Below, piece by piece: positions 5,031 to 17,125 of a stretch of 64,000 nucleotides of DNA. This DNA is from Desulfuromonadaceae bacterium (GTDB lineage: Bacteria > Desulfobacterota > Desulfuromonadia > Geobacterales > Pseudopelobacteraceae). Each line of letters opens with the position of its first letter. Position 1 is the first letter of the stretch. Location: positions 62,001-126,000 of the forward strand of contig JAQTZV010000002.1 of assembly GCA_028687585.1 (NCBI GenBank). Direction: 5' to 3'. The notes beneath the pieces are model-generated. The model worked only from the letters and a program-made list of their open reading frames with translations, was not told the origin of the DNA and did not search any database. Both the position numbers and the translations under genes were made by a program.

Positions 5031-5282
5031 AGCACAAGTTCTGCTTATCTTTTAGCTATATGTTCTGCCGGACGAACCCAAGTGACGAGTCCATGTTCAA
5101 ACTGCTTTATTTAGCTTTACAAAATATCTCGAAGAAATCGACCATGCCTATCAGATTGAAAATCAGCATTGAACCAGTTCAGCATCATATTTGACGGCAG
5201 AATGCCAACTGCTAAAAGTATCTTTTCAGTCTCTAAGGTGAATGATAGCAAGTATTTTCCGCATAAATCATGAGGTTTTAGA
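5031..5282. other. Intergenic stretch before the hybrid kinase
   Basis: 252 bases without a gene. Nothing recognisable apart from AT-rich DNA near 5250-5282 leading to the kinase start. Confidence 0.4.
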
Positions 5283-7649
5283 ATGGCCGAAAATATAGAA
5301 AATATTAAGCAGATCAAGAAGCAACGTTGGCTGAAGATGGTAATGTTCTCTCTTCTGGCGGCCGTTATTGTATCAGGTTCTGTCTATTACGCCATATCAA
5401 GCTATGTCATGAGTGAGGCAGAGGAGAACATTCAGAACATCCTACAGTCTAACAGGGCGGTACATCAATACATTCAGCAAATTATGCATCCGACATTTTT
5501 CCGGGATCGCAACAAGGGAAAAGTGCCCCAGGATTATTATACTCCGGAAATTTTTTCTTCTTCTTTCATCGTGCGAGTTATGCATAACTTTCATAATAAG
5601 GAGCGTGTAAAACTCGGATTACCTGAGGTTTACTATAAACTGGCATCTGACAACCCCCGCAACCCGCTGAACAAGGCTGATGAATTTGAAATGGGTCTGA
5701 TCAGGATGTTCAATGAACAGCGGGACATGAAACAGTTCCGAAAGATAGTTACGGTTGATGGGAAGGATTATCTCTACTATGCAATCCCTTTCCTTGAAAC
5801 AAGCAATGCTTGCATACGTTGCCACGGCAAGCGATCTGATGCGCCAGTTGGCTTGCAGCGAATATATTCTGGAAGCGGCGGTTTTAACGAACTGACTGGC
5901 CGTATTCGCGCAATAGAGTCTATTCGCGCTCCTATCGTTAAAGAAAAGTATTCTCTTGCCATAACCGGTTCTTCTATCGCAGTATTTGCTGTAGTAGGGC
6001 TGGGCATGTTCTTCTTCAATAGAAAGCTTAGATATGATGTTAGCGAGCGGACCGTAGATCTGGAACATGAGATTAAAGAACGAGTCAACACAGAGCGCGA
6101 ACTTGTTGTGAGTCGCAGGCTGTATCAAAATCTTGTGGAAGGGACACCGGATCTTATCACCAGAGTAGATACGGAGGGGCGCCTGGTCTTTGTGAACCAT
6201 GCCGCACTCAACATCTTTGGATTGTCGCCTGAAGAATGTATTGGCCGTTTGGTTTTTGACTTCATACACCCTGAAGATCGGGAGGTGACGATCAAAGCGT
6301 TTCAGGATTGGCTTAATGGCAGCAAGGAATCATTCACTTTTGAGAATCGGCAAGTGGGCATTTTGGGTCAAGAACACTTTATGTCATGGTCGATTCGCAG
6401 TGAAAAAGATGAGAATGGCATTGTCCAAGGTTTTGCCGGCACAGCTCATGACATCACCAACCGCAAACGTGCTGAAGAGGAGAAGATCAAACTTGAAAGC
6501 CAGCTCCAACAGGCGCAAAAGATGGAATCAGTTGGCCGGTTGGCCGGAGGTGTCGCTCACGATTTTAATAACCTGCTGACGGTCATCCTTGGAGGTGCTC
6601 ACCTCGCTCTCAGTGAACTGGAACCTGGTCAACCTCTCTATGAATACGTAACCCTAATCCAAAACGCCGGCGAAAAATCTGCCGTTCTCACGCAGCAATT
6701 ACTGGCCTTTGCACGTAAACAGACCATCGAACCCAAGGTGCTGGACCTGAACGAGATCGTATCAGGAATGATCAAGATGCTCCAACGCCTGATCGGCGAG
6801 AATACACAGTTAACGTGGCAGCCAGCGAACAATCTATGGCCGGTCAAGGCAGACCCCTCCCAGATTGATCAAATCCTTGCCAACCTCTGTGTTAACGCTC
6901 GGGATTCGATAACAGACATCGGTGCTATTACTATCCAGACGGGGAACAACGTTGTTGATGAGGGCTACAATATCGAACATGCTGACGTTATTCCTGGCGA
7001 GTATGTTCATATTTCCGTGTGCGACAACGGCTGCGGCATGGACAAAGAAACAATGGCTCATATTTTTGAACCATTCTTCACGACGAAAGGTGCCGGTGAA
7101 GGAACCGGTTTGGGTCTGGCCACAGTATATGGTGCTGCAAAACAGAACAACGGCTTTGTCAACGTCTACAGTGAGCTTGGCATTGGTACTACTTTCACAA
7201 TCTATCTGCCCAGGTATGTTGGCAATGCCGATCAGAAGTCAGCAAAAGGACAGGCGCAACCGGCCCCGAGGGGGCTAGAGACAATTTTACTTGTAGAAGA
7301 TGAGGCTGCAATTCTTAATATGGTAAAATTGCTTCTCACAAAACAGGGCTATACTGTGCTGGCGGCAAACACCCCCGGAGAAGCGACCCGTTTGGCAAGT
7401 GAACAGTCCGGTAAAATTGATCTGCTCATTACTGATGTGGTGATGCCGGAGATGAACGGGAAGGATTTGGCTCATAACCTGATGTCACTCAATTCGAAAC
7501 TCAAATGCTTGTTCATGTCCGGATATACTGCTGACGTGATCGCTCATCATGGTGTTCTCGAAGAAGGGATGCATTTTATTCATAAACCATTCGCTTTGCC
7601 TGATCTGGCGGTTAAAGTGCGAAAAGTGCTGGATGGAAAATACCCGTGA
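5283..7649 (+). CDS. Hybrid sensor histidine kinase with haem-binding DUF3365 sensor domain
   Basis: 788 residues. Order: cytoplasmic tip, TM helix (about 18-38), a periplasmic DUF3365/Tll0287-type domain carrying a c-type haem motif CIRCH at 177-181, and a second TM (226-246). A short linker helix, a PAS domain (about 280-390), a HisKA phosphoacceptor (GGVAHDFNNLL, His426) and an HATPase domain (DNGCGMD, EPFFTTK, GTGLGLATVYG) follow, ending in a receiver domain (LLVEDE and phosphoacceptor Asp in LITDVVMPE). The covalent haem suggests redox or gas sensing at the periplasm. No DNA-binding output is attached and no partner regulator is adjacent, so the downstream target is unknown. Single gene with its own RBS. 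Confidence 0.9.
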   Translation: MAENIENIKQIKKQRWLKMVMFSLLAAVIVSGSVYYAISSYVMSEAEENIQNILQSNRAVHQYIQQIMHPTFFRDRNKGKVPQDYYTPEIFSSSFIVRVMHNFHNKERVKLGLPEVYYKLASDNPRNPLNKADEFEMGLIRMFNEQRDMKQFRKIVTVDGKDYLYYAIPFLETSNACIRCHGKRSDAPVGLQRIYSGSGGFNELTGRIRAIESIRAPIVKEKYSLAITGSSIAVFAVVGLGMFFFNRKLRYDVSERTVDLEHEIKERVNTERELVVSRRLYQNLVEGTPDLITRVDTEGRLVFVNHAALNIFGLSPEECIGRLVFDFIHPEDREVTIKAFQDWLNGSKESFTFENRQVGILGQEHFMSWSIRSEKDENGIVQGFAGTAHDITNRKRAEEEKIKLESQLQQAQKMESVGRLAGGVAHDFNNLLTVILGGAHLALSELEPGQPLYEYVTLIQNAGEKSAVLTQQLLAFARKQTIEPKVLDLNEIVSGMIKMLQRLIGENTQLTWQPANNLWPVKADPSQIDQILANLCVNARDSITDIGAITIQTGNNVVDEGYNIEHADVIPGEYVHISVCDNGCGMDKETMAHIFEPFFTTKGAGEGTGLGLATVYGAAKQNNGFVNVYSELGIGTTFTIYLPRYVGNADQKSAKGQAQPAPRGLETILLVEDEAAILNMVKLLLTKQGYTVLAANTPGEATRLASEQSGKIDLLITDVVMPEMNGKDLAHNLMSLNSKLKCLFMSGYTADVIAHHGVLEEGMHFIHKPFALPDLAVKVRKVLDGKYP

Positions 7650-7882
7650 TTTCTGGTATGAGACCCTCAAGGGGATCGATGAAAACCAGCGGGAATTCTT
7701 CTAGGCAGCAGAGGCGGGAAAGCGAGGGACATATTCCGAATGGAGCTCGTTATTGTTGTTTTTGAAGTGATGACATTTTTATGGTATGAGGACAGTGGCG
7801 CGTCCAATTATCAGCAGCGTACAATGCTCATGAATGTCCCCTGATAGCCGGCCTAAACCATGGATCCCTTGGAGGAGAATCG
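7650..7882. other. Intergenic stretch before the glycosyltransferase
   Basis: 233 bases without a supported gene. It must hold the promoter of the glycosyltransferase, but no clear boxes were found. Confidence 0.4.
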
Positions 7883-9694
7883 ATGAATCATCCATCCCGG
7901 ACGCACCGGCAAGCCTGGCAAAACGGCATGAGCCTTTCCCTGCTATGTGGGCTTATTACCCTTGTCATGGCCGTTGGTCTGTTCGCGTACGGAATCTCCT
8001 CGGCCGACCGGATGCGCGACCTTTTCGGGAAATCAACCTATTATATTCTGTGGATTCTTTTTCTCATCTGGCTGATACAGTGCGGTATATTCCTCCGTTC
8101 CATTGCGTTTTCCTGGAAACAGTTCCTGCGCGATTCCTGGCCCGTGCTGGTTGTCGCACTCCTGCTTACCGTCATGACAGCCACGGCCGTTCCATCCAAA
8201 TTCCGTGTTCTCAGTGATGAAGCCAATCTAGCTTCGGTATCCCGATCGATGGTACACGCCAAGACCGTGTATAATTATACGATCGCAAAAAATTACTACT
8301 TCACGTTCACACCTCTTGTGGCCGAGCTCGAAAAACGGCCCATGCTCTACCCGTTCTTCGCTCATCTCCTGCATCTTGTGCGCGGTTATGACGTCAAGAA
8401 CCTCTTTCTGCTTAATCTTCTTCTGCTTTTTTTCCTTCTTGCGGCAGCCGGCATTCTGGTCAGACGGGCATTCTCTTCGGCACTATTTCCTGAATCAGGC
8501 TCCGTATGGTTTTCCGCACTGTTTTTACTACTTTCCTGTCCGATCGTCACGCTCACAGCCACATCTGCGGGGTTTGACTTTTTTTCTGCGGTGTTTTTCG
8601 GCTGGTCTTTTTTTCTGCTGACCCGGTTTATTAAACTCCGGACTCCCGAAAGTCTTGCCTTTCTCTGGATAAACCTGCTCCTGCTCGCTCATGCGCGCTA
8701 TGAATCGTTCATCTTTTTCGGTATTGTCATGTGCGGACTGCTGATTTCCCGCCGCCTCACCCCGGACCTTTTTTCACGCTACCACCACGTATACCTGGTA
8801 GCTCCTCTTGCCCTTGTTCCGCTTGTTTTTCAGCGGATAATCTGCCATGGCAAGTACGAAAACCCACCCGGTGTTCCGGTATTTTCCGTCCGGCATCTCG
8901 TGACCAATCTTAAACACTTTTTTCAGTGTATTTCCGATTTTACGTTTTTTTATCCGTATCCGAATCTGCTGCTGTGGATTTCTCTTGCCCTGGCAATAGC
9001 ATTGGGGATGCTCTGGTATCTCAGGAAAAGTGTGACTGTCAGTTCAGACCTGCGCCTGTTCCTCGCCCTGCTGCTTGCAAGTCTGGGGGCATATCTTGCT
9101 GTGGTCTTTTCGTATTACCTGGGCGACCCCAAACACCCCACGTCAGCCCGTTTTTTTGTGCTCCCCGTAGCCGCCCTTGCCCTGTTACCGGTTCTGGCCC
9201 ATCGTGTCTGGCCGCGTATTTTCAGCCAGCGATTGTTGCTTGCAGGGTCAGTCGGCATGCTGTTGCTCTATTTCCCGGTAGCTAGCGAGGACCGCTTCAC
9301 CCAGTCACTTGAACTGATCAGGGAGACGGAACATTCAGTGCAGTTTCTGCAACGCTTGCAGAGCAGAAACATATTCGTCATTGCCGACAGACCCGGTATT
9401 TACAGCGCCTTTCAGTATGGAACGGCAGATTTCTCATATGCAAACAAAAACAGGAAAGAACTGCTTGCCGAGCTGGATAATCATCTCTACAGCAGAATCG
9501 TAGTCCTGCAGCAGATTTCCTATGACACCCGCACACCGCTCCAATCTCAAGTGCTTGATCCCGAATTTGTTCTTTCACAACCGGCGGCGGAATATCAGAT
9601 CACCGGAAACTACTTCCTGCGGATATCCTATGTCGTACGACCGGAAAGCGCTCCCTCAAGAGATGCGGTTCAGAGGGCAGTGCTTCAGCAATAG
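7883..9694 (+). CDS. Polytopic membrane glycosyltransferase, GT-C/ArnT-like
   Basis: 603 residues with roughly a dozen hydrophobic helices from residue 16 to about 470 and a soluble C-terminal tail. After the first helices there is an extracytoplasmic Asp-Glu pair in VLSDEANLASVSRSM (residues 112-113), at the place where GT39/GT83-type glycosyltransferases keep their catalytic acid. That would make it a polyprenyl-phosphate-sugar dependent transferase acting on a surface glycan, lipid A or protein. The start has a strong GGAGGAG site 6 nt upstream. It is monocistronic as far as can be seen. The family assignment is moderate because no longer motif is decisive. Confidence 0.65.
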   Translation: MNHPSRTHRQAWQNGMSLSLLCGLITLVMAVGLFAYGISSADRMRDLFGKSTYYILWILFLIWLIQCGIFLRSIAFSWKQFLRDSWPVLVVALLLTVMTATAVPSKFRVLSDEANLASVSRSMVHAKTVYNYTIAKNYYFTFTPLVAELEKRPMLYPFFAHLLHLVRGYDVKNLFLLNLLLLFFLLAAAGILVRRAFSSALFPESGSVWFSALFLLLSCPIVTLTATSAGFDFFSAVFFGWSFFLLTRFIKLRTPESLAFLWINLLLLAHARYESFIFFGIVMCGLLISRRLTPDLFSRYHHVYLVAPLALVPLVFQRIICHGKYENPPGVPVFSVRHLVTNLKHFFQCISDFTFFYPYPNLLLWISLALAIALGMLWYLRKSVTVSSDLRLFLALLLASLGAYLAVVFSYYLGDPKHPTSARFFVLPVAALALLPVLAHRVWPRIFSQRLLLAGSVGMLLLYFPVASEDRFTQSLELIRETEHSVQFLQRLQSRNIFVIADRPGIYSAFQYGTADFSYANKNRKELLAELDNHLYSRIVVLQQISYDTRTPLQSQVLDPEFVLSQPAAEYQITGNYFLRISYVVRPESAPSRDAVQRAVLQQ

Positions 9695-9879: not shown

Positions 9880-10671
9880 ATGGACCAAAAAGCACTGTTA
9901 CGGTTACTGTTTGTCGTTGCTCTTGCTGCAGTTCCGGTAATTCCCGGTTGCAGCGGTGACGACACCAACACGGCAACCAACACCAACACGGCAACCAACA
10001 CCAACACGGCAACCAACACCAACACGGCAACCAACACCAACACGGCAACCAACACCAACACGGCAACCAATACCAGCACGGCAACCAATACCAGCACGGC
10101 AACCAATACCAGCACGGCAACCAACACCAGCACGGCAACCAATACCAGCACGGCAACCAATACCAGCACAGCAACCAATACCAGCACGGCAACCAACACC
10201 AGCACAGCAACCAACACCAGTACGGCAACCAATACCAGCACGGCAACCAACACCAGCACGGCAACCAACACCAGCACAGCAACCAACACCAGCACAGCAA
10301 CCAACACCAGTACGGGAACAGGGGCATATACAGCAGCACAAATGACAGGGACCTGGGACTATACCATCGATTCTTATGGCAGTGCGACCACCGAATGCGT
10401 TGCATTGCCAACCGTTCAGCTTTCAATGTCATGCACTTCAACGTACGATGCCAGCTGTAACATATCGACAGCATGTAAAATGAACGGAGTTGATTTGCCG
10501 GTGACACAATCCAAATGCGATCCGAATAACGCAGTCTCGACAGCTCCCGGCACTGATCCGTGCAACACACAATTTACGTATGTTACAAATAGCAGCAGCC
10601 CGCTGTCATTAACGGTAACAGGCAAAGTCGGTGGCGCGACTTATTTTATTCTGACCCAAACAAAACGATAA
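9880..10671 (+). CDS. Lipoprotein with TNTSTA tandem repeats
   Basis: 263 residues. A lipoprotein signal ends at the lipobox cysteine in VIPGC (Cys24), so the protein is probably anchored to the outer membrane. Residues about 29-146 are a short TNTA followed by nineteen hexapeptides: five TNTNTA, thirteen TNTSTA and one TNTSTG. This should be an extended, Thr-rich, possibly glycosylated stalk. The C-terminal 115 residues form a small domain with four or more cysteines (ECVALP, SCTSTYDASC, ACK, KCDPN), probably disulfide-bonded. RBS GGGGGA precedes the ATG and a strong terminator follows. I do not recognise the C-terminal domain; a surface or matrix role is inference. Confidence 0.82.
   Translation: MDQKALLRLLFVVALAAVPVIPGCSGDDTNTATNTNTATNTNTATNTNTATNTNTATNTNTATNTSTATNTSTATNTSTATNTSTATNTSTATNTSTATNTSTATNTSTATNTSTATNTSTATNTSTATNTSTATNTSTATNTSTGTGAYTAAQMTGTWDYTIDSYGSATTECVALPTVQLSMSCTSTYDASCNISTACKMNGVDLPVTQSKCDPNNAVSTAPGTDPCNTQFTYVTNSSSPLSLTVTGKVGGATYFILTQTKR
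9968..10315 (+). repeat. Tandem 18-bp repeat inside the lipoprotein gene
   Basis: Nineteen copies of an 18-bp unit of the form ACC AAy ACC Arc ACr GCA. The first five encode TNTNTA and the rest encode TNTSTA. Copies differ only at synonymous or AAC/AGC positions (AAC/AAT, ACG/ACA, AGC/AGT), which points to recent expansion by slippage or unequal exchange. The number of units is likely to vary between strains. The unit length is a multiple of three, so changes in copy number keep the frame. Confidence 0.93.
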
Positions 10672-10859: not shown

Positions 10860-11120
10860 ATGCTTGCTCCTGAGCCGTTCTACACAACCAAATTTACTGG
10901 CCTTGGCCTTGGAATGCCGGCGGTGCTTGGTATTATCAACTCGCATAATGGTGGATTGCAGCTTTTCAGCCAACTGGGTCAGGGGACAACATTCAAAGTC
11001 TATCTGCCTATTCTGAACGATGACTCAACCGGAGAGAACGATGAAATACCGTCCGCTCCTGAAGCACCATGGAAGGGAATCCAGATATTCATTATCTCAA
11101 ATAACATTCTAAGGTCATAA
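10860..11120 (+). pseudogene. Histidine kinase C-terminal remnant
   Basis: The 86-codon frame reads EPFYTTKFTGLGLGMPAVLG then a GG-rich turn and GTTFKVYLP, which is the F/G2 end of an HATPase_c domain of a hybrid kinase. It is followed by a degenerate start of a receiver domain (GIQIFIISN). The phosphoacceptor, N-box and G1 box are missing, and nothing kinase-like lies upstream, where the DNA runs back to the terminator at 10.7 kb. It is a truncated leftover, not a working gene. It sits immediately beside the left boundary of the integrated element (11171). Confidence 0.8.
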
Positions 11121-11170: not shown

Positions 11171-11244
11171 CAACACAAAAGAAAAAGCCCTTGAATTATC
11201 AAGGGCTTTTGGTTGTATCCGGATGGTACCGGACTGTTAATTGG
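11171..11244. repeat. Left attachment-site repeat (distal copy)
   Basis: 74 bp identical to 16700-16773. It includes a copy of the tmRNA terminator hairpin (11183-11210) and ends in TTGG, the complement of the tmRNA CCA end, after which the sequences diverge. It marks the boundary between chromosome (histidine kinase remnant side) and element. Confidence 0.92.
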
Positions 11245-11314
11245 GACGGTGTCAATACAACTGATTGTATAATTATATAATAAATAACGTTATTATCAGG
11301 TTGCAAAAGTTGAG

Positions 11315-11335
11315 ATACCCCTAAAAATACCTCTA
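11315..11335. promoter_or_regulatory. Candidate integrase arm-type sites, left end
   Basis: Two copies of ATACCYCTA (11315-11323 and 11327-11335) with starts 12 bp apart, about 70 bp inside the left repeat. The same motif occurs four times at the right end of the element, so these may be integrase or excisionase arm sites. Pattern-based prediction. Confidence 0.4.
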
Positions 11336-11373
11336 AAATATTTTGCTCAGAGTACTTATGGACGTTTGATTTG

Positions 11374-11616
11374 TCAAGCCAAAGGTAATGCATATGACTT
11401 ATTTATGAGTCGACGAATATCGAGAACGTTCCAGCAGGTAGTTCTTTCTCCAAGTTTAATAGGTTTTGGAAAACGTCCTGACTTCACGCCATCCCACCAT
11501 GTCGATTTGCTCACAGGTATTATCGGAGGTATTCCCTTTTTCTTATCTCCCAAAATCTGTGATAACCTCACAAGACCAGTTTCAGGAAGTATGTTGCATT
11601 TATCGAAATTTTGCAT
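11374..11616 (-). CDS. AlpA-family regulator / excisionase-like protein
   Basis: 80 residues with the AlpA winged-helix pattern: GLVRLSQIL, then VSKSTWWDGVKSGRFPKPIK (recognition helix and turn) and WNVLDIRRLI. Proteins of this family activate the integrase or act as recombination directionality factors in P4-like elements. The gene overlaps the end of the small ORF upstream (start 11616, that ORF ends at 11600). It is therefore the last cistron of a compact minus-strand operon that starts with the ribbon-helix-helix-like gene. Position near the left attachment repeat fits a role in excision. Confidence 0.85.
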   Translation of the reverse strand: MQNFDKCNILPETGLVRLSQILGDKKKGIPPIIPVSKSTWWDGVKSGRFPKPIKLGERTTCWNVLDIRRLINKSYALPLA

Positions 11617-11851
11617 ATAGCACCAATTGGTTAAAGGCGATATTTGGGACGCGAGCGACGTAGTTGCTGTTTGTTACTGTTCTTCGCGTTGCGGCTATGG
11701 AGGTATTATCAGCAATGCTGGTAAAGCCAAGGCGGTTGTTGATGGCGTGAAGGCAAAACCCCACACGCCATAGGGCTTGAGGCCTTCGGCCTGATGTTTT
11801 CATACCTGCAAAGCCCAGTTTTTTAAGCATGTTCTTAATATTGCCATTCAT
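11600..11851 (-). CDS. Small basic protein of unknown function, coupled to rep
   Basis: 83 residues, starting with an ATGA overlap on the rep stop codon (start 11851, rep ends 11848) and running 17 nt into the alpA-like gene. This phasing is what a translationally coupled cistron would show. It has several basic residues and a segment VGFCLHAINNRLGFTS but no motif I can assign. It may be a real conserved small protein of such elements, or an open frame kept by overlap constraints. Confidence 0.45.
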   Translation of the reverse strand: MNGNIKNMLKKLGFAGMKTSGRRPQALWRVGFCLHAINNRLGFTSIADNTSIAATRRTVTNSNYVARVPNIAFNQLVLYAKFR

Positions 11852-13098
11852 AGCTGATCCTCACATTTTTGTATCAGCCGCGCTGCCATTTCCGCTTCAC
11901 ATCTTTCCAGTCCACCATCAAATTCCATGATTGCCGCACGTTCTACAAATTCCTCTTTGTGATTGCCGTAATTATCAGCTTTTCCTTGAGCCGAAACGAG
12001 TAACATTTGTTCATGCTTTGTACCCATTCGCTCTGATCCGTCTGCAATTAGTTCTCGCATATACTCATTGTAAGAAAAATCACCCAGGTCGGTTTTGATC
12101 ATGGCAAGGGTAGGGGCGTATTGTCGTTTAACGAACCTCATGACCTCGCCAACGGTTTTGATTTCTTTTGCAGTAGTGAGCTTGATCTTTTCAGTTGATT
12201 TTAGCCAGGATGACCACCAGAGCTGAATACTGCGGCGTGATGTATTGCTGTCATCGCTGTTAATGACGGAAAGGTACTGATTAATGATACCGACAAACAG
12301 TTGACCAACCGGAACACCTAATGAAAGGTGTTTGGCCGCTTCATGTGCACGCTTGTCTTTCAATTCTACTTCAGCACGATTCCAGAAGAAGGGAACGCCG
12401 AGTTGAGCGGCTTTATCGTAAAAACGGAGGTACACGCGGGAACTTCTTTTGCCGAAGTACAAGGTATGACCGTCTGCGGGTTGTTCTCTCTCTGGCGAAA
12501 GATCAAAGTTTTGAATCTCACTGGCGTTCCTGAATCGTGATCTGATTTCACATTTAAGAATCGCTTCTTTGAGTTTTGCCAAATCAAGCGCACCGTCAAC
12601 ATTGTCATGAGCTATATCAAGGCGGGTGAATTTAGCGTTGAATTTGATGGCTGTTGCAAAGAGAGCAAACCAGGGTATTTTTGGGAACTGTGATTCGTAC
12701 TGACGGCAACCCTGGCCAGACATCACAACATGACAACCCATATTCGGTTGACCATCAGAATATACGCAGATGTTACCGAAGCGGAGGGACTTTCTATATC
12801 CGTGGATACCGCGATCAAGTTCAGAAAACAGAGCGGATTTCAGACCTATGATTTTGATGAGTTCCAGGGGATCAGTGACTTTGACGGTGAATGCTACCCA
12901 GTCGATTAAGAACTGATCTAAAAGAGGAACTGTAATTTGTGCCCCCCTATTAGTTAAGGGGGGCTTGTAGTCTGGTGGAAGGGTATCAGGTGCATCGCCG
13001 GAGGTGGAGGCCGAGCCGTCACCCTCGGTTTCAATACCAGACTTACTTTGGTTGCAATCGTTACTTGAATCAGAATTTGCGTGATGGTACATTGACAT
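11848..13098 (-). CDS. Rep_trans-family replication initiator / MobT-like relaxase
   Basis: 416 residues. After a Ser/Asp-rich linker of about 50 residues, the protein shows the PF02486 pattern: LIDWVAFTV, KFTRLDIAHDNVDGAL (acidic metal-binding strand), GHTLYFGKRSS, then VYLRFYDKAAQ (candidate nucleophilic tyrosine) and a paired acidic/basic strand WNRAEVELKDKRAHE. The family includes pT181-type RepC initiators and the ICE relaxases Orf20/NicK (MobT). It should nick one DNA strand and initiate rolling-circle replication or transfer of the excised element. AAGGAG precedes the ATG at 13098. A GC hairpin lies in its own N-terminal coding region (12941-12964). Confidence 0.8.
   Translation of the reverse strand: MSMYHHANSDSSNDCNQSKSGIETEGDGSASTSGDAPDTLPPDYKPPLTNRGAQITVPLLDQFLIDWVAFTVKVTDPLELIKIIGLKSALFSELDRGIHGYRKSLRFGNICVYSDGQPNMGCHVVMSGQGCRQYESQFPKIPWFALFATAIKFNAKFTRLDIAHDNVDGALDLAKLKEAILKCEIRSRFRNASEIQNFDLSPEREQPADGHTLYFGKRSSRVYLRFYDKAAQLGVPFFWNRAEVELKDKRAHEAAKHLSLGVPVGQLFVGIINQYLSVINSDDSNTSRRSIQLWWSSWLKSTEKIKLTTAKEIKTVGEVMRFVKRQYAPTLAMIKTDLGDFSYNEYMRELIADGSERMGTKHEQMLLVSAQGKADNYGNHKEEFVERAAIMEFDGGLERCEAEMAARLIQKCEDQL
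12941..12964. other. GC hairpin within rep, candidate nick site
   Basis: GCCCCCC and GGGGGGC form a perfect 7-bp stem around a 10-nt loop, inside the linker-coding part of rep (about residue 45). In pT181-type replicons the double-strand origin lies inside rep, so this hairpin is a candidate origin. The position is suggestive only. Confidence 0.35.
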
Positions 13099-13181
13099 AG
13101 AATCTCCTTGTTTTTACCTATGGGGTGATTTTAGAGAGGGAAGCCGGCCGCCAAGCAAAGCTTCCCTCTCTTTTTTTTGGT

Positions 13182-13538
13182 TTATTTTTTATCAGTTTGT
13201 TTTTTCTTTATTGTCCTGGCCTTAGTAGCGTCAGGAAGTTTTTGGTCTGTAGTTGGAGCGTGTTGTTCGTCATATATTTCCTTGAGTTTCATCACAGTAA
13301 GATTGTGATGCTTACTTTTTTCTTCATCACTGAGATGTTTCATAATTTCTTCGTGCCCAACTTGGAGAACGTTTATGAGGGTTGTATTCATACTTTCATT
13401 AGTCATTATAGAAATGGCGTGAATCTTTGAATACATTGAAATATTCATTCGTACAGATATTGATTTTATCATGGTGACATCTTCTTCAAAGAGGTCTGTG
13501 CCTCTTATGCTACTGATTACAACATCTATCGCTTCCAT
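13182..13538 (-). CDS. Small ribbon-helix-helix-like protein
   Basis: 118 residues. The segment KSISVRMNISMYSKIHAISI then TNESMNTTLINVLQVGHEEI has the strand-helix-helix rhythm of MetJ/Arc-type DNA-binding proteins, and the C-terminus is Lys-rich (KARTIKKKQTDKK). The start has a clear GGAGG site 5-6 nt upstream. It is the first gene of the minus-strand operon with rep, 83 nt upstream of it. A role as rep repressor or as relaxosome accessory protein is inferred from size, fold pattern and position. The fold call is moderate. Confidence 0.55.
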   Translation of the reverse strand: MEAIDVVISSIRGTDLFEEDVTMIKSISVRMNISMYSKIHAISIMTNESMNTTLINVLQVGHEEIMKHLSDEEKSKHHNLTVMKLKEIYDEQHAPTTDQKLPDATKARTIKKKQTDKK

Positions 13539-14069
13539 GCATTACCTCCAACAATTTTTGAGAATCATAAATGAATTACTGTATGAATCATAGAATGATT
13601 TATAATAAATGCAAGTGTTTTTTTAGCGGGTCAATATATTGTGCTAATACTGCGAAGCTATCGCTTCGCCTTTCACACTTGCGCTCACTAACGTTCGCCG
13701 CACCATCGGCAGGTTTGCGCTCATAGCGCGCCTACCTGCCTTTTTGGGCGTGCGTTTGATTTAACTTTAAGAAATTTAAATGGTGTGGTAGGAAAGGTAG
13801 ATATATATCTAAGCCCCCGTGTTACTGAAACGGGGAGGGAAATGATGATGAATTTATCGTTGGGGTTGTTGACCAGAAAACCGGTCAACAAGTATTTGGA
13901 ATATTATTCAATAAACAGTGTTTAATAAAATCAGTTGAACAAGAGAACTGACAACCCAATTGATAAAAAAAGAAGGCCCATAAATGAAACAGCGGGAAGC
14001 GGCACTGGTTGTCGCCAAGTTTTGGCAACAGGAGCCATCTGCATCATCCTATGAACAGTAAGGTGAAAC
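13539..14069. other. Hairpin-rich non-coding region, candidate origin
   Basis: 531 bases between the divergent RHH-like and TPR genes. It holds an 18-bp palindrome (13652-13669, stem GCGAAGC), a nested hairpin GGCAGGT...ACCTGCC with an inner GCGC stem (13708-13740), a CCCCGT/ACGGGG hairpin (13815-13835) and a 9-bp stem TTGTTGACC/GGTCAACAA (13866-13891). No convincing gene is present. Very short frames with possible RBSs exist: 27 codons from the ATG cluster near 13843, 25 codons at 13984, and a minus-strand frame with one hydrophobic helix ending at 13931. Clustered stems beside a nicking-type Rep suggest oriT or a single-strand origin. Confidence 0.4.
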
Positions 14070-15224
14070 ATGTCTAACATAATATCAGTTATAAGATGTT
14101 TTAGTAAAAAACGGCTCTTCATTATGAAATATAAACTTTATAGATATAAAAATGATCATCCGTTTAAATTTATTGAGTTTTATAAATATTTTACTACGGT
14201 TATCGCTTTTTTGGTTATAAACTTTATAATATTTAAAATTCTAATCGGATTGGCAAATAACTATATAATAGTAGAACCGTTTGAAGTACCTACGCAACTA
14301 TCTAATAGCGGATATACTGGTAAAACTATAGCAACTAAAATTATTAATAGAATGGAATATTTGACATCGAAATCAGTATTCAGAAACAATAATGAAATAA
14401 TTAACGCATCATCATCTGTTTATAAGTCCGATATTATAATACCTTATGCATCAAATACATTAACGTCAATAGTCATGTCGATTAGGGAAGTCATCTCTGA
14501 TCCGTTGTTTATTATATCTGGATTTATTGTTTCAGATAATAAAAACGATTTAAAGATGAAGTATATTATGAAAGGAAAGCGCAGACTCATTCTAACTAAT
14601 GACAATGATTACGTTATAAATAAGGATAATGATTTAGATGAAATAATTAATAATGCTGCATTAAAAATATTAGTTCAAATTGATCCTTCAACAGTGGCGG
14701 GTTATTACTTTAGGGTGGAAGATTATAAATCTGTTATAGCAATATGTAATGCAATAAATAAAATGGAACCAAGATATGCAGGTATTACGTATAGTATATG
14801 GGCTAATGCACATTTGAAATTAAGTGAATTCGATAAAGCATTAAACAAAATTGAGGAGGCAGCTAAGTATATAAATAGTAAAGATTTAAAAACTAATGTA
14901 TATGCCGTTTGGGGTGATATTTTGAGAAAAAAATGTGCATTTAGCGAAGCAATAGTTAAATACAAAGTGGTTAGTGATAATAATTCAAAAGATTCATATC
15001 CATATTATATGATAGGAGATATTTTGATATTACAAAAAAAATATAATGAATCAATTACCTATTTGAATCGTGCAATTGATCTTGATAAAGACAATCCTAA
15101 GAAAAAAGATACAATATTTGCTATTTCAAACGTCATTAATACTTTGAGAAAAGTTAGTGATGATGAACTCGATAAAATTAATAGTAATCTTAATATGATA
15201 ATAATTTCACAAGATATATACTAG
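14070..15224 (+). CDS. AT-rich membrane-anchored TPR protein (element cargo)
   Basis: 384 residues. One transmembrane helix near residues 45-65 (TTVIAFLVINFIIFKILIGL) is followed by a domain of unknown type (about 75-210). Two to three TPR-like helix pairs come next (IWANAHLKLSEFDKALNKIE, YPYYMIGDILILQKKYNESI and TYLNRAIDLDKDNP). Base composition is far more AT-rich than the rest of the window, marking recent transfer. RBS AAGGTG lies 5 nt before the first ATG. It is alone on its strand within the element and is the only cargo-like gene. I do not recognise the middle domain; function unknown, with helper or phage interaction one possibility. Confidence 0.75.
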   Translation: MSNIISVIRCFSKKRLFIMKYKLYRYKNDHPFKFIEFYKYFTTVIAFLVINFIIFKILIGLANNYIIVEPFEVPTQLSNSGYTGKTIATKIINRMEYLTSKSVFRNNNEIINASSSVYKSDIIIPYASNTLTSIVMSIREVISDPLFIISGFIVSDNKNDLKMKYIMKGKRRLILTNDNDYVINKDNDLDEIINNAALKILVQIDPSTVAGYYFRVEDYKSVIAICNAINKMEPRYAGITYSIWANAHLKLSEFDKALNKIEEAAKYINSKDLKTNVYAVWGDILRKKCAFSEAIVKYKVVSDNNSKDSYPYYMIGDILILQKKYNESITYLNRAIDLDKDNPKKKDTIFAISNVINTLRKVSDDELDKINSNLNMIIISQDIY

Positions 15225-15335
15225 CAAACATTACGTGGATATGTTGCTTGTTGATTGTGACTCACCGGATTTGCCTGCAATAAGGAAACCTTTCATCAGG
15301 CTTTCACCAATCCGGTTATATTCCGCATTTTCCCG

Positions 15336-16568
15336 TTACGCCGCCCGTATAAACGGTATAACCTTAGCCCCTGCCTTCAATCCGTCCAGATAATCAGCCC
15401 AAAGTTGCATCATTTTCTTGCGCTCAACAAGGTGTGCTGTCCGATTGTATGCCCTGCCGTTCGGGTCTTTGACAGCGTGAGCAAGCTGGTGTTCAATGTA
15501 GTCAGGGCGGACTTGTAACACCTCATCAAGAATAGTACGCGCCATTGCTCTGAATCCGTGGCCGGTCTGATCTTCTGAAGTGTAACCCATACGTCGCAGG
15601 GCGGCATTGATGGCGTTGTCTGTCATGGGGCGCAGTGGAGTGCGGTGGTTAGGAAAAACATATTTACCGAATCCGGTTAATGGCTGTAACTCCTTTAAAA
15701 TAGCCATTGCCTGACGTGATAGGGGTACAATATGGGGTATTTTCATCTTCATTTTTTCAGCGGGTATGTTCCATCGCCCTTCCTCAAAATCTATTTCAGC
15801 CCATTCCATCTGGCGCAACTCTCCAGGACGTACAAAGAGAATTGGAGCCAGCTTTAAGGCACATTGCACATGAAATGTACCGACAAAACTGTCAATTGCA
15901 CGTAATAGCTCGGCTACCTCTTTCGGGTCGGTAAGTGCGGCATGGTGCTTTTCCCGTACTGGTGGCAATGCCCCCCGCAGGTCAGCCGCAATATCACGTT
16001 CAGCGCGTCCGGTTGCTACGGCATAGCGTAGGACTTGGCCGCAAATTGTTCTGATCCTGTGCGCTGTTTCCAGCGCGCCACGGCCTTCTACTCGCCGGAG
16101 TACTGCCAGGATATCAACAGGTTTAATCTCTGCAATAGGTTTTGATCCTAGCCAGGGGAAAACGTCACGTTTTAGCCTATCCATGATTGTCAGTGCATGC
16201 CCCTCAGACCATTGGCCGGAAAATTTTGTATGCCATTCAAGAGCAATTATCTCGAAGCTATTTTCTTCAAGGTCAATTTTAGTTTGTTTAATAGTTTTCT
16301 TCATTTCGCCAGGGTCAATGCCATTTGCCAGCAGTTTTTTTGCATCTTCACGGCGTTGTCTGGCATCGGCAAGGGAAAGGGCAGGGTACGCACCGAAAGC
16401 AAGTACTTTACGCTTGTCACCGAAACGATAGTCAAATCGCCAAAGTTTTCCGTTAGTGGGTGTAACGAGCAAATAAAGACCAAACCCGTCCATCAATTTG
16501 AATTCTTTTCCTTGAGGTTTTGCAGTCCTAACTTGAATGTCTGAAAGTGGTGTAATCCGCTTTGGCAT
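15336..16568 (-). CDS. Tyrosine recombinase, P4/IntA-type integrase
   Basis: 410 residues. The N-terminal arm-binding domain is DUF4102-like (LSDIQVRTAKPQGKEFKLMD, FGAYPALSLADAR), followed by a SAM-like core-binding domain and the catalytic domain. Visible catalytic residues are Arg in RPGELRQMEW, the Lys of the beta-hairpin, HGFR (His and Arg), the His in HQLAHAV and the nucleophile Tyr in RAYNR. It lies next to the tmRNA end of the element, pointing away from it, as usual for ssrA-integrated islands. It should catalyse integration and excision between the 74-bp repeats, probably with the AlpA-like protein as partner. Confidence 0.95.
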   Translation of the reverse strand: MPKRITPLSDIQVRTAKPQGKEFKLMDGFGLYLLVTPTNGKLWRFDYRFGDKRKVLAFGAYPALSLADARQRREDAKKLLANGIDPGEMKKTIKQTKIDLEENSFEIIALEWHTKFSGQWSEGHALTIMDRLKRDVFPWLGSKPIAEIKPVDILAVLRRVEGRGALETAHRIRTICGQVLRYAVATGRAERDIAADLRGALPPVREKHHAALTDPKEVAELLRAIDSFVGTFHVQCALKLAPILFVRPGELRQMEWAEIDFEEGRWNIPAEKMKMKIPHIVPLSRQAMAILKELQPLTGFGKYVFPNHRTPLRPMTDNAINAALRRMGYTSEDQTGHGFRAMARTILDEVLQVRPDYIEHQLAHAVKDPNGRAYNRTAHLVERKKMMQLWADYLDGLKAGAKVIPFIRAA

Positions 16569-16585
16569 TGGGCTTCTCCTTTTTA

Positions 16586-16658
16586 TGGAGGTATTTGAAA
16601 TGTGTTATGGAGGTATCCGTGTAAGTTGTTTGGAGGTGAGCCTCTATAAATACCTCCA
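16586..16658. promoter_or_regulatory. Candidate integrase arm-type sites, right end
   Basis: Four copies of the motif TGGAGGTrw or its complement lie just upstream of the integrase gene: 16586-16594, 16608-16616, 16631-16639 and inverted at 16650-16658. The first three start 22-23 bp apart. The last two form an inverted repeat. The same sequence appears twice at the left end of the element. They could bind the integrase arm domain or regulate int. Confidence 0.5.
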
Positions 16659-16699
16659 TAAAAAACGGATTTCAGCATACCAAATCGGACGCTAGTGGA

Positions 16700-16773
16700 C
16701 AACACAAAAGAAAAAGCCCTTGAATTATCAAGGGCTTTTGGTTGTATCCGGATGGTACCGGACTGTTAATTGG
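16700..16773. repeat. Right attachment-site repeat overlapping the tmRNA 3' end
   Basis: 74 bp identical to 11171-11244. It covers the tmRNA terminator and the final CCA of the tmRNA gene (16771-16773). The tmRNA gene itself is intact on this side. Confidence 0.92.
16712..16739 (-). terminator. Terminator of the tmRNA gene
   Basis: Perfect 12-bp stem AAAAGCCCTTGA / TCAAGGGCTTTT with a 4-nt loop, about 30 nt past the tmRNA 3' end. The flanking A and T runs allow it to work in both directions. It lies inside the attachment repeat, so a second copy exists at 11183-11210. Confidence 0.9.
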
Positions 16774-17125
16774 TGGAGACGGTGGGAGTCGAACCCACGT
16801 CCGAAAAACCTAGCATCTGAGACCCTACACCGTTAGTTCGTTGCTCGATTTAACCATCTGCCTGTGCACCGAACAAAGCAGTCAGACGGCGGTCCCGTTG
16901 AGTTTCGGGTTGCGCTACGGGCGTTGCGCTCCCCTATCCGGTAGTGAGTGACGCCCCCTTTTTACCACCGGCATCTTGATCGGGGACGCCTGTTAAGCTG
17001 CTAGAGCAACAGGAGTGTTATAATTGTCGGCAATTAATGCCGTGCAGGTTTATTAAGGTCGGCCGCCTGCCCCGACCCGGTGCTCCCCAGATTTTCAATT
17101 CCCCGTCGAAACCTTTACGTCCCCC
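16771..17125 (-). ncRNA. ssrA: Transfer-messenger RNA (tmRNA)
   Basis: On the minus strand the 5' end reads GGGGGACGTAAAGGTTTCGA and the 3' end TTCGACTCCCACCGTCTCCA-CCA, the paired tRNA-like halves of tmRNA with an encoded CCA. The mRNA-like part carries the tag reading frame at 16993-17031, giving ADNYNTPVALAA followed by TAA, a typical proteolysis tag ending in LAA-like residues. It rescues stalled ribosomes together with SmpB, whose gene lies about 1 kb away on the same strand. About 355 nt, one-piece form. The 3' end is the insertion site of the element on its left. Confidence 0.97.

What the first reader, a model, noticed from the sequence alone, without database searches (positions are those of the whole stretch)
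11171..16773. A 5.5-kb integrative element at the tmRNA gene with its own nicking-type Rep
Perfect 74-bp direct repeats bound a compact module: integrase, AlpA-type factor, Rep_trans protein, RHH-like protein, a hairpin-rich spacer and one cargo gene. There is no conjugation or capsid gene. The Rep_trans family includes both plasmid initiators and MobT/NicK relaxases, so this may be a minimal mobilisable island or satellite that replicates or transfers with a helper.
Basis: partly seen in the sequence, partly recalled or inferred. Interest (0 to 1): 0.78.

Follow-up and report, generated by a model that had tools for sequence, protein, structure and literature searches.

The report
Tiny satellite-like island beside tmRNA gene
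A 5.5-kb DNA island sits next to a bacterial housekeeping RNA gene; it carries its own rolling-circle replication starter and two replication-origin-like hairpins, one of them of a kind found in filamentous phages, so it may be a small hitchhiker that spreads with a helper phage.

Summary
A perfect 74-bp repeat (11171-11244, 16700-16773) bounds a 5,529-bp unit at the 3' end of ssrA with a P4-type tyrosine integrase, AlpA, a Rep_trans initiator, a 118-aa ORF (RHH not confirmed), a structured spacer and an orphan TPR cargo gene. The Rep keeps the active-site residues of RepSTK1 and fails two MobT tests. Its 15 strong matches in 76 family genomes are 8 inovirus prophages with Zot and 7 Zot-less loci, this one included. 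It has two origin-type hairpins: one inside rep, of a type found at 6 sites in the 76 genomes, all at Zot-less reps, and one in the spacer, of a type common at inovirus reps. Beside it lies a covarying 118-nt structure shared with related islands and no Rfam family. Best reading: a satellite-like element that excises, replicates by rolling circle and needs a helper, most likely a filamentous phage, with a tailed phage close behind (I55, PICMI). No helper was found in this genome (no Zot, no VirB4). New variant of a known kind.

The parts
11171..11244 (.). distal attachment repeat (74 bp)
   Evidence: exact direct repeat
16700..16773 (.). ssrA-proximal attachment repeat (74 bp)
   Evidence: exact direct repeat
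16771..17124 (-). tmRNA gene ssrA (integration target, intact)
   Evidence: ARAGORN; Rfam RF00023 152.9 bits
15336..16568 (-). P4-type tyrosine integrase
   Evidence: Pfam PF13356, PF22022, PF00589; integrases 75-83% identical beside ssrA in other genomes
11374..11616 (-). AlpA-type regulator / excisionase candidate
   Evidence: PF05930 23.3 bits; 83-89% identical copies in L029, L030 and L198
11600..11851 (-). 83-aa ORF, unknown
   Evidence: similar ORF in L026 (55% over 51 aa) and L028; DNA 81% identical to L026 at 11685-11814 and 86% to L028 at 11720-11799
11848..13098 (-). rolling-circle replication initiator (Rep_trans + Rol_Rep_N)
   Evidence: PF02486 167.9 bits; PDB 4cij E 6.5e-39; active-site residues
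12941..12964 (-). origin-type hairpin inside rep, type 2 (stem GCCCCCC/GGGGGGC, loop TTAACTAATA)
   Evidence: 6 sites in 6 of 76 genomes
13182..13538 (-). 118-aa ORF, RHH-like by eye only
   Evidence: no Pfam hit above cut-off; weak phrog_8682; low-confidence model
13636..13753 (-). covarying structured region R1 (27 pairs)
13815..13835 (-). second origin-type hairpin, in the spacer, type 1 (stem CCCCGT/ACGGGG, loop TTCAGTAAC)
13866..13891 (-). perfect 9-bp-stem hairpin (TTGTTGACC...GGTCAACAA)
14070..15224 (+). cargo: orphan protein with TPR repeats and a hydrophobic N-terminal segment (seen by eye), in DNA of 28-30% GC
   Evidence: TPR; no relative but itself in the protein search; no PADLOC match; GC
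16580..16664 (.). inverted repeat upstream of int (17-nt arms); candidate integrase arm or operator sites (inferred)
   Evidence: I3, and D2/D6 copies

Best explanation
A helper-dependent, satellite-like integrative element. Integrase with AlpA excises a 5.5-kb circle from the 3' end of ssrA (inferred from family and repeats). Rep nicks the hairpin inside its own gene with Tyr227 and copies the circle by rolling circle, giving single-stranded circles (active site and hairpin shown; activity inferred). The element codes for no particle or pilus, so it must use a helper. The most likely helper is a filamentous phage: in the host family the Rep is nearest, after other Zot-less Reps, to inovirus Reps; the spacer bears an origin-type hairpin of the kind common at inovirus reps, which a helper Rep could use; and R1 could serve as complementary-strand origin or packaging signal (inferred). 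The cargo gene is the exchangeable module.
For: Perfect att repeat at ssrA; integrase and AlpA; 14 of 14 RepSTK1 active-site positions kept (positions from section 11 of PMC4797284). Of 15 strong Rep matches in 76 genomes, 8 lie beside Zot (8 of 8) and 7 do not. Tree of 19 context-labelled rows: all inovirus rows as one clade p-AU 0.036, all Zot-less rows as one clade p-AU 0.035, two changes of label. Type-1 hairpin: 16 sites in 10 of 76 genomes, reversed control 0; 26 IMG/VR contigs, of which 17 match Zot and 19 match Rep by tblastn, 22 either, 4 neither. CTXphi RstA nicks between G and T in an apical loop (passage of PMC4439123), which fits AG/TAAC here. Similar layout in L026, L027, L028, L030, L157, L200, L201.
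Against: No Zot in the own genome, and only 2 of the 7 genomes with a Zot-less Rep carry Zot (G059, G073). Same-genus genomes with Zot (G022, G024, G031, G046) show no strict type-1 site. The spacer hairpin is intact in 2 of 4 clade-B elements, half decayed in L027 and lost in L026. The hairpin kind is not phage-only: an Exiguobacterium plasmid matches the type-2 pattern and pSTK1 has a type-1-like hairpin; the IMG/VR scan covered viral contigs only. Against annotated records, plasmid Reps score higher (best 173 bits) than phage Reps (best 140 bits). The published islands most like this one use tailed phages. R1 was not found in the inovirus loci searched nor by pattern in viral contigs. Clade tests are marginal, with long branches.
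Confidence: 0.4

Rival explanations
1. Satellite of a tailed phage, like the I55 islands and PICMIs: integrase and AlpA excise it, Rep makes rolling-circle concatemers, and a tailed helper packages them.
For: I55-family islands sit directly downstream of tmRNA with intY, alpA, an inovirus Gp2-like protein and defence cargo; I55 is carried by a jumbo phage (passages of PMC12595487). PICMI replication looks plasmid-like rolling circle (passages of PMC10803314). Of 10 cargo proteins of related or neighbouring-type islands scanned with PADLOC, 3 match strongly (methylase of L030, AbiL-type ATPase of L031, kinase of L157), 3 weakly, 4 not.
Against: No primase, RadC, YqaJ or Gp2 match in the element; the window's own cargo has no PADLOC match; pac/cos sites were not tested; Rep and hairpins resemble those of inoviruses.
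Confidence: 0.25
2. Integrative plasmid-like element that excises and replicates but has no present means of transfer beyond chance (transformation, generalised transduction).
For: No helper found in this genome; ssrA islands with this integrase but no Rep exist, and one has a split integrase (L107); the rep frame of the relative in G010 is interrupted.
Against: Perfect 74-bp repeat and intact Rep, Int and hairpins here suggest recent arrival; the same modules are scattered over the family with different cargo.
Confidence: 0.2
3. Mobilisable element (IME) in which Rep acts as a MOBT-like relaxase for a helper conjugative system.
For: Rep_trans proteins include MobT; Rep_trans initiators occur in streptococcal IMEs (passages of PMC5704250); MOB-suite types pSTK1 as MOBT.
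Against: NCBIfam MobT 125.6 bits against 600; no N-terminal HTH; no VirB4 in the own genome; MobT use is described for Firmicutes.
Confidence: 0.1
4. About the spacer hairpin only: it is a relic. The island first had a diverged Rep (as in L157, L200, L201) with its origin in the spacer, and the Rep gene was later replaced by an inovirus-type Rep that carries its own origin inside the gene.
For: L152 and L157 have a type-1 hairpin in the same place next to a diverged Rep; R1 occurs with diverged Reps in L198, L200, L201; decay in L026 and L027.
Against: The 21-mer is identical at 7 sites in three genera with unrelated DNA upstream, which suggests continued use.
Confidence: 0.35

Closest known systems
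I55-family tmRNA islands of Pseudomonas (PMC12595487, passages read)
   Same: Integrated immediately downstream of tmRNA, direct repeats, tyrosine integrase, AlpA, inovirus-like replication protein, no transfer genes, defence cargo
   Different: 5.5 kb here; Rep_trans Rep in place of the Gp2-like protein; 74-bp repeat against 14 bp; no RadC or YqaJ match; helper unknown
PICMI (PMC10803314, passages read)
   Same: Minimal gene set, integrase plus AlpA plus replication gene, rolling-circle-like replication
   Different: PICMI has a DUF3987/DUF5906 primase and sits at fis; neither found here
RS1 satellite of CTXphi (gene content recalled; named in passages of PMC4439123 and PMC11389934)
   Same: RstA-type Rep and origin without capsid genes, depends on a filamentous phage
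   Different: RS1 uses host XerCD and rstB/rstC (recalled); here own integrase, AlpA, cargo
pSTK1 and pT181-type rolling-circle plasmids
   Same: Rep_trans fold and active site; origin-type hairpin at the start of rep (L121)
   Different: Integrative, with AlpA, second hairpin and R1
Inoviruses of the same host family (L032-L039) and in IMG/VR (L125, L126)
   Same: Related Rep; origin-type hairpin at the start of rep in 8 of these 10
   Different: No Zot, coat or adsorption gene here
[quoted passage not shown] title in reference lists only; not held)
   Same: By its title, a non-phage replicon as inovirus satellite
   Different: Text not seen; that one is an autonomous plasmid

Membership tests
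Rep_trans rolling-circle initiators | PF02486 domain above cut-off | tested here: met
   167.9 bits, cut-off 29.6
Rep_trans rolling-circle initiators | active-site residues incl. nucleophilic Tyr and three metal-binding acids | tested here: met
   14 of 14 positions as in RepSTK1: D66, R159, D161, A163, D165, T212, Y214, G216, R225, Y227, K229, Q232, R241, E243
Rep_trans rolling-circle initiators | nicking activity | not testable with these tools
   needs biochemistry
MOBT relaxase | N-terminal HTH plus PF02486 | tested here: not met
   Rol_Rep_N plus Rep_trans only; definition from passages of PMC6499999
MOBT relaxase | NCBIfam NF041493 cut-off | tested here: not met
   125.6 against 600 bits
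Inovirus | Zot/pI ATPase and coat genes | tested here: not met
   none among the six ORFs; no Zot in the own genome
I55-type tmRNA island | integrase downstream of tmRNA with direct repeats | tested here: met
I55-type tmRNA island | AlpA | tested here: met
   23.3 bits, cut-off 21
I55-type tmRNA island | inovirus Gp2-like protein, RadC, YqaJ | tested here: not met
   no such Pfam hits up to E 1
I55-type tmRNA island | packaging by a phage | not testable with these tools
   needs culture
PICMI | DUF3987/DUF5906 primase; fis site | tested here: not met
   no primase hit; site is ssrA
IME | relaxase with oriT and helper conjugation system | tested here: inconclusive
   Rep_trans present; no VirB4 in own genome; oriT not tested

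The most novel reading that the evidence does not exclude
A family of inovirus satellites in Geobacteraceae and kin: integrase islands of about 4-6 kb that took over an inovirus-type Rep, keep a private origin inside that gene (type 2) and in some cases also display an inovirus-type origin (type 1) plus a conserved structured packaging or conversion element (R1) in the spacer, so that an infecting filamentous phage both replicates and packages them; the origin hairpin is also the junction at which cargo, often defence-like, is exchanged.
Probability: 0.2. Interest if true: 0.85.

Novelty: new variant of a known kind. Interest (0 to 1): 0.57.

Why it matters
Inovirus satellites with their own integrase seem hardly described: the listings of the searches made here (an open-licence library only) showed none, beyond the RS1 case and a title on one plasmid. 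If right, zot-based inovirus surveys overlook a class of helper-dependent islands that spread single cargo genes. The hairpin 21-mer and the R1 covariance model give simple handles to count them and to test helper dependence.

Tried and rejected
MobT/conjugation reading: marked down. RHH call: left open. R1 as a known RNA: no Rfam family (best hit a snoRNA at E 0.33, off R1). R1 in inoviruses: none at a good score among the inovirus loci in the 70 sources searched with the model (one weak hit in L038 at E 0.28) and none by pattern in viral contigs. Type-1 motif in print: 10 unrelated papers hold fragments. Idea that the hairpin is an element end: rejected for L157, where a 125-bp repeat at 94% places it inside the element; for G053 (L152-L154) no outer end was found, so whether cargo or chromosome lies upstream is open. 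Clade test with unlabelled rows gave extreme p values because unnamed rows were left outside; it is not used, one search replaces it. The first active-site table used a wrong offset; one search replaces it. Cargo search found only the window's own protein. Seven weaker Rep matches were not examined. A clean empty site with both flanks was not shown: the left flank has no counterpart beside ssrA in most relatives.
Full report
WHAT IS THERE. The window lies in a genome of 5.47 Mb in 60 contigs; a relative's contig is titled Geobacteraceae bacterium GWC2_55_20. A 74-bp exact direct repeat at 11171-11244 and 16700-16773 bounds a 5,529-bp unit. ssrA is at 16771-17124 on the minus strand, so the repeat holds only its CCA end and the 71 nt downstream with a terminator-like hairpin. 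Inside are: integrase 15336-16568, AlpA 11374-11616, an 83-aa ORF, Rep 11848-13098, a 118-aa ORF 13182-13538, a spacer, and a divergent cargo gene 14070-15224. The cargo DNA is 28-30% GC; its protein has TPR repeats and, in a search of 5.8 billion proteins limited to relatives sharing short words, no relative but itself.

THE SITE. This integrase subfamily often sits at ssrA. In the ssrA loci fetched, an integrase 75-83% identical lies next to ssrA in L030, L101, L102, L103, L105, L106, L118 and, split in two frames, in L107. Of these only L030, like the window, has a Rep in the stretch fetched. In L030 the integrase is 80% and AlpA 88% identical while Rep is 49%: the modules are exchanged. 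L102 is a 6.1-kb island with an 88% repeat and no Rep match. Of 12 ssrA loci without a full-length integrase, 8 show one copy of the repeat region, 2 none like it and 2 a second diverged copy.

THE REP. It matches Rep_trans and Rol_Rep_N and the structure 4cij of the pSTK1 Rep (E 6.5e-39). All 14 active-site positions taken from section 11 of PMC4797284 (that section read) are kept, with Tyr227 as the nucleophile. In 76 genomes of the family 22 have a match; 15 are strong (over 200 bits) and were examined: 8 (L032-L039) lie with a Zot gene (8 of 8; L032 also has a coat-protein match below cut-off), and 7 (window, L026-L031) do not; of those 7 genomes two have Zot elsewhere. In the 7, a tyrosine integrase is seen in 5 (window, L026, L027, L028, L030); in L029 and L031 no match to the integrase queries was found in the stretch held. 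Sizes from repeats: window 5.5 kb, L026 4.3 kb (24-bp repeat at tRNA-Gly), L027 5.2 kb (23-bp repeat at tRNA-Gly). In L026 (G010) the rep frame is interrupted at the hairpin (two stops in the match). The own genome has one Rep_trans, no Zot and no VirB4. Against annotated records all matches are below 60% identity; plasmid Reps of Firmicutes score up to 173 bits, phage Reps up to 140.

RELATEDNESS. With 17 context-labelled rows and two plasmid Reps as outgroup, Zot-less Reps fall in two groups and the label changes twice; one clade for all inovirus rows is rejected at p-AU 0.036, one clade for all Zot-less rows at 0.035. These are marginal, the group was chosen after a first tree, and long branches are present. 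A larger tree with unlabelled rows also sets the Zot-bearing L035 next to the window's group.

TWO HAIRPINS. A hairpin lies at the start of rep in most of these genes: type 2 (CCCCCC, loop ending CTAAYA, GGGGGG) in Zot-less reps, type 1 (CCCCGT, loop ending AGTAAC, ACGGGG) in the inovirus reps L032, L037, L039, L125, L126; L033 to L035 and the Zot-less L029 have variants, and none was recognised at that place for L036 and L038. The pattern is wider than phages: at or near the start of rep an Exiguobacterium plasmid has a strict type 2, pSTK1 and the inovirus Dulem virus 64 have type-1-like ones, while the MobT and the Vibrio phage stretches fetched show none. Published work puts the nick in such a loop for pT181-type Reps, with the specific binding site downstream (passages of PMC4797284), and between G and T for CTXphi RstA (passage of PMC4439123). 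Type 2 occurs at 6 sites in 6 of 76 genomes, control 0: inside the Zot-less reps of G000, G025, G052, G059, G073, and at the interrupted start of that of G010. Type 1 occurs at 16 sites in 10 of 76 genomes, control 0, and in 26 IMG/VR contigs, of which 17 match Zot, 19 match Rep, 22 either and 4 neither (two of the 26 are the contigs of L125 and L126). The window has both: type 2 at 12941-12964 in rep and type 1 at 13815-13835 in the spacer, on the same strand. L028 has both too, with an identical 23-bp stretch and different flanks. L027 keeps only the right half of the type-1 site and sequence after it, L026 neither arm.

STAND-ALONE TYPE-1 SITES. L157 (G066) and L152 (G053) are another kind of island: serine recombinase (Pfam for L157, 83% identical protein in L152), a diverged Rep (Rep_trans 21-23 bits, below the cut-off of 29.6), an ORF, the hairpin, then other genes. 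L157 has a 125-bp repeat at 94% around about 6.2 kb with the hairpin inside. In G053 three stretches are 92-99% alike over about 146-149 bp from the first base of the hairpin onward and unlike before it. L107 has the hairpin near a split related integrase with no Rep match; L155 has it near an integrase with a 31-aa Rep-like fragment; L156 has two; L150 and L151 have it between genes with no integrase or Rep match. So in several islands the hairpin marks the border between replication module and variable DNA. That cargo is swapped at the nick is an inference.

R1. Next to the spacer hairpin lies a structured stretch, 13636-13753. Seven sequences give 27 pairs, 13 with changes on both sides; 91.3% of cells pair, 13 double-changed pairs against a shuffled mean of 6.1 (0 of 500 as high), slid controls 1 to 4. 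Relatedness can inflate the shuffle test, and a structure derived from these sequences tends to beat slid versions. A covariance model finds it in 8 of 76 genomes, with filters that lose weak matches: three Rep elements (G000, G010, G052) and G012, G013, G021, G031, G047; 7 of the 8 built the model or are the loci it came from. In G012 and G013 it again lies between other genes and a replication operon with a diverged Rep, AlpA-type gene and integrase at a tRNA; in G021 the same operon is there but the contig ends just past R1. The G031 and G047 contexts show no Rep. No Rfam family fits. It could be a complementary-strand origin, a packaging signal or an RNA leader of the rep operon; nothing here decides.

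HOW IT LIKELY WORKS. Shown: integrative unit, intact active site, origin-type hairpins, covarying spacer, no transfer genes, no resident helper of the two kinds tested. Inferred: excision by Int with AlpA; nick at the rep hairpin; rolling-circle copies; transfer in helper particles. If the two hairpin types are read by different Reps, the own Rep would not end replication at the spacer hairpin, which would otherwise drop the 871 bp between them; this argues for two specificities, but is an argument, not a result.

COMPARISON. Closest in print, from passages: I55-type tmRNA islands carried by a jumbo phage and PICMIs. Both are satellites of tailed phages, which is why that rival stands close. 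Rep_trans initiators in IMEs are known from streptococci. Passages of the inovirus survey PMC6813254 describe detection through the pI protein, so islands like this one would be missed there (inference). The paper searches made here cover an open-licence library only.

Noticed in passing
L104 2780-3183 and L105 11933-12286 (G046 contig C62): Two tmRNA genes of different type (tags AADNYAFAGAIAA and ADNYNTPIALAA) about 24 kb apart in one genome; L111, L112, L113 have a longer tmRNA (404-407 nt) with a similar ADNYAFAG-type tag.
   Followed up: no
L114 1609-1677 (G026 contig C61): A copy of the repeat region (90% over 69 nt) with no tmRNA gene found in the 3.5-kb stretch.
   Followed up: no
L152, L153, L154 (G053): Three 92-99% alike stretches begin exactly at the type-1 hairpin, with different DNA before it; two lie at contig ends.
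   Followed up: partly
L030 8142-9518, L029 4461-5969, L031 5285-6838, L198 8634-10226, L200 12550-14058: A conserved protein of about 460-530 aa downstream of Rep in one group of islands; no Pfam match in the two scanned.
   Followed up: no
L185 1735-2679, L188 1886-2842, L198 11564-12592: A conserved protein of about 315-340 aa between R1 and a diverged Rep; no Pfam match in the two scanned.
   Followed up: no
L155 about 6519-8857 and L156 9533, 11230 (G059): Integrase at tRNA-Ser with a type-1 hairpin, an AlpA fragment and a 31-aa Rep-like fragment; and two hairpins 1.7 kb apart in repeated DNA near tRNA-Pro.
   Followed up: partly
window 11685-11814: DNA inside the 83-aa ORF is 81% (L026) and 86% (L028, 80 bp) identical, higher than the protein match of 55%; it may be a DNA site rather than a gene.
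   Followed up: no
L032 (G068) 5238-5257 and 10869-10888: An inovirus prophage with two type-1 hairpins 5.6 kb apart, one at the start of rep, possibly a tandem remnant.
   Followed up: no
window 9880-10671: ORF with a long Asn-Thr-rich repeat (NTNTAT and NTSTAT units), open in several frames.
   Followed up: no
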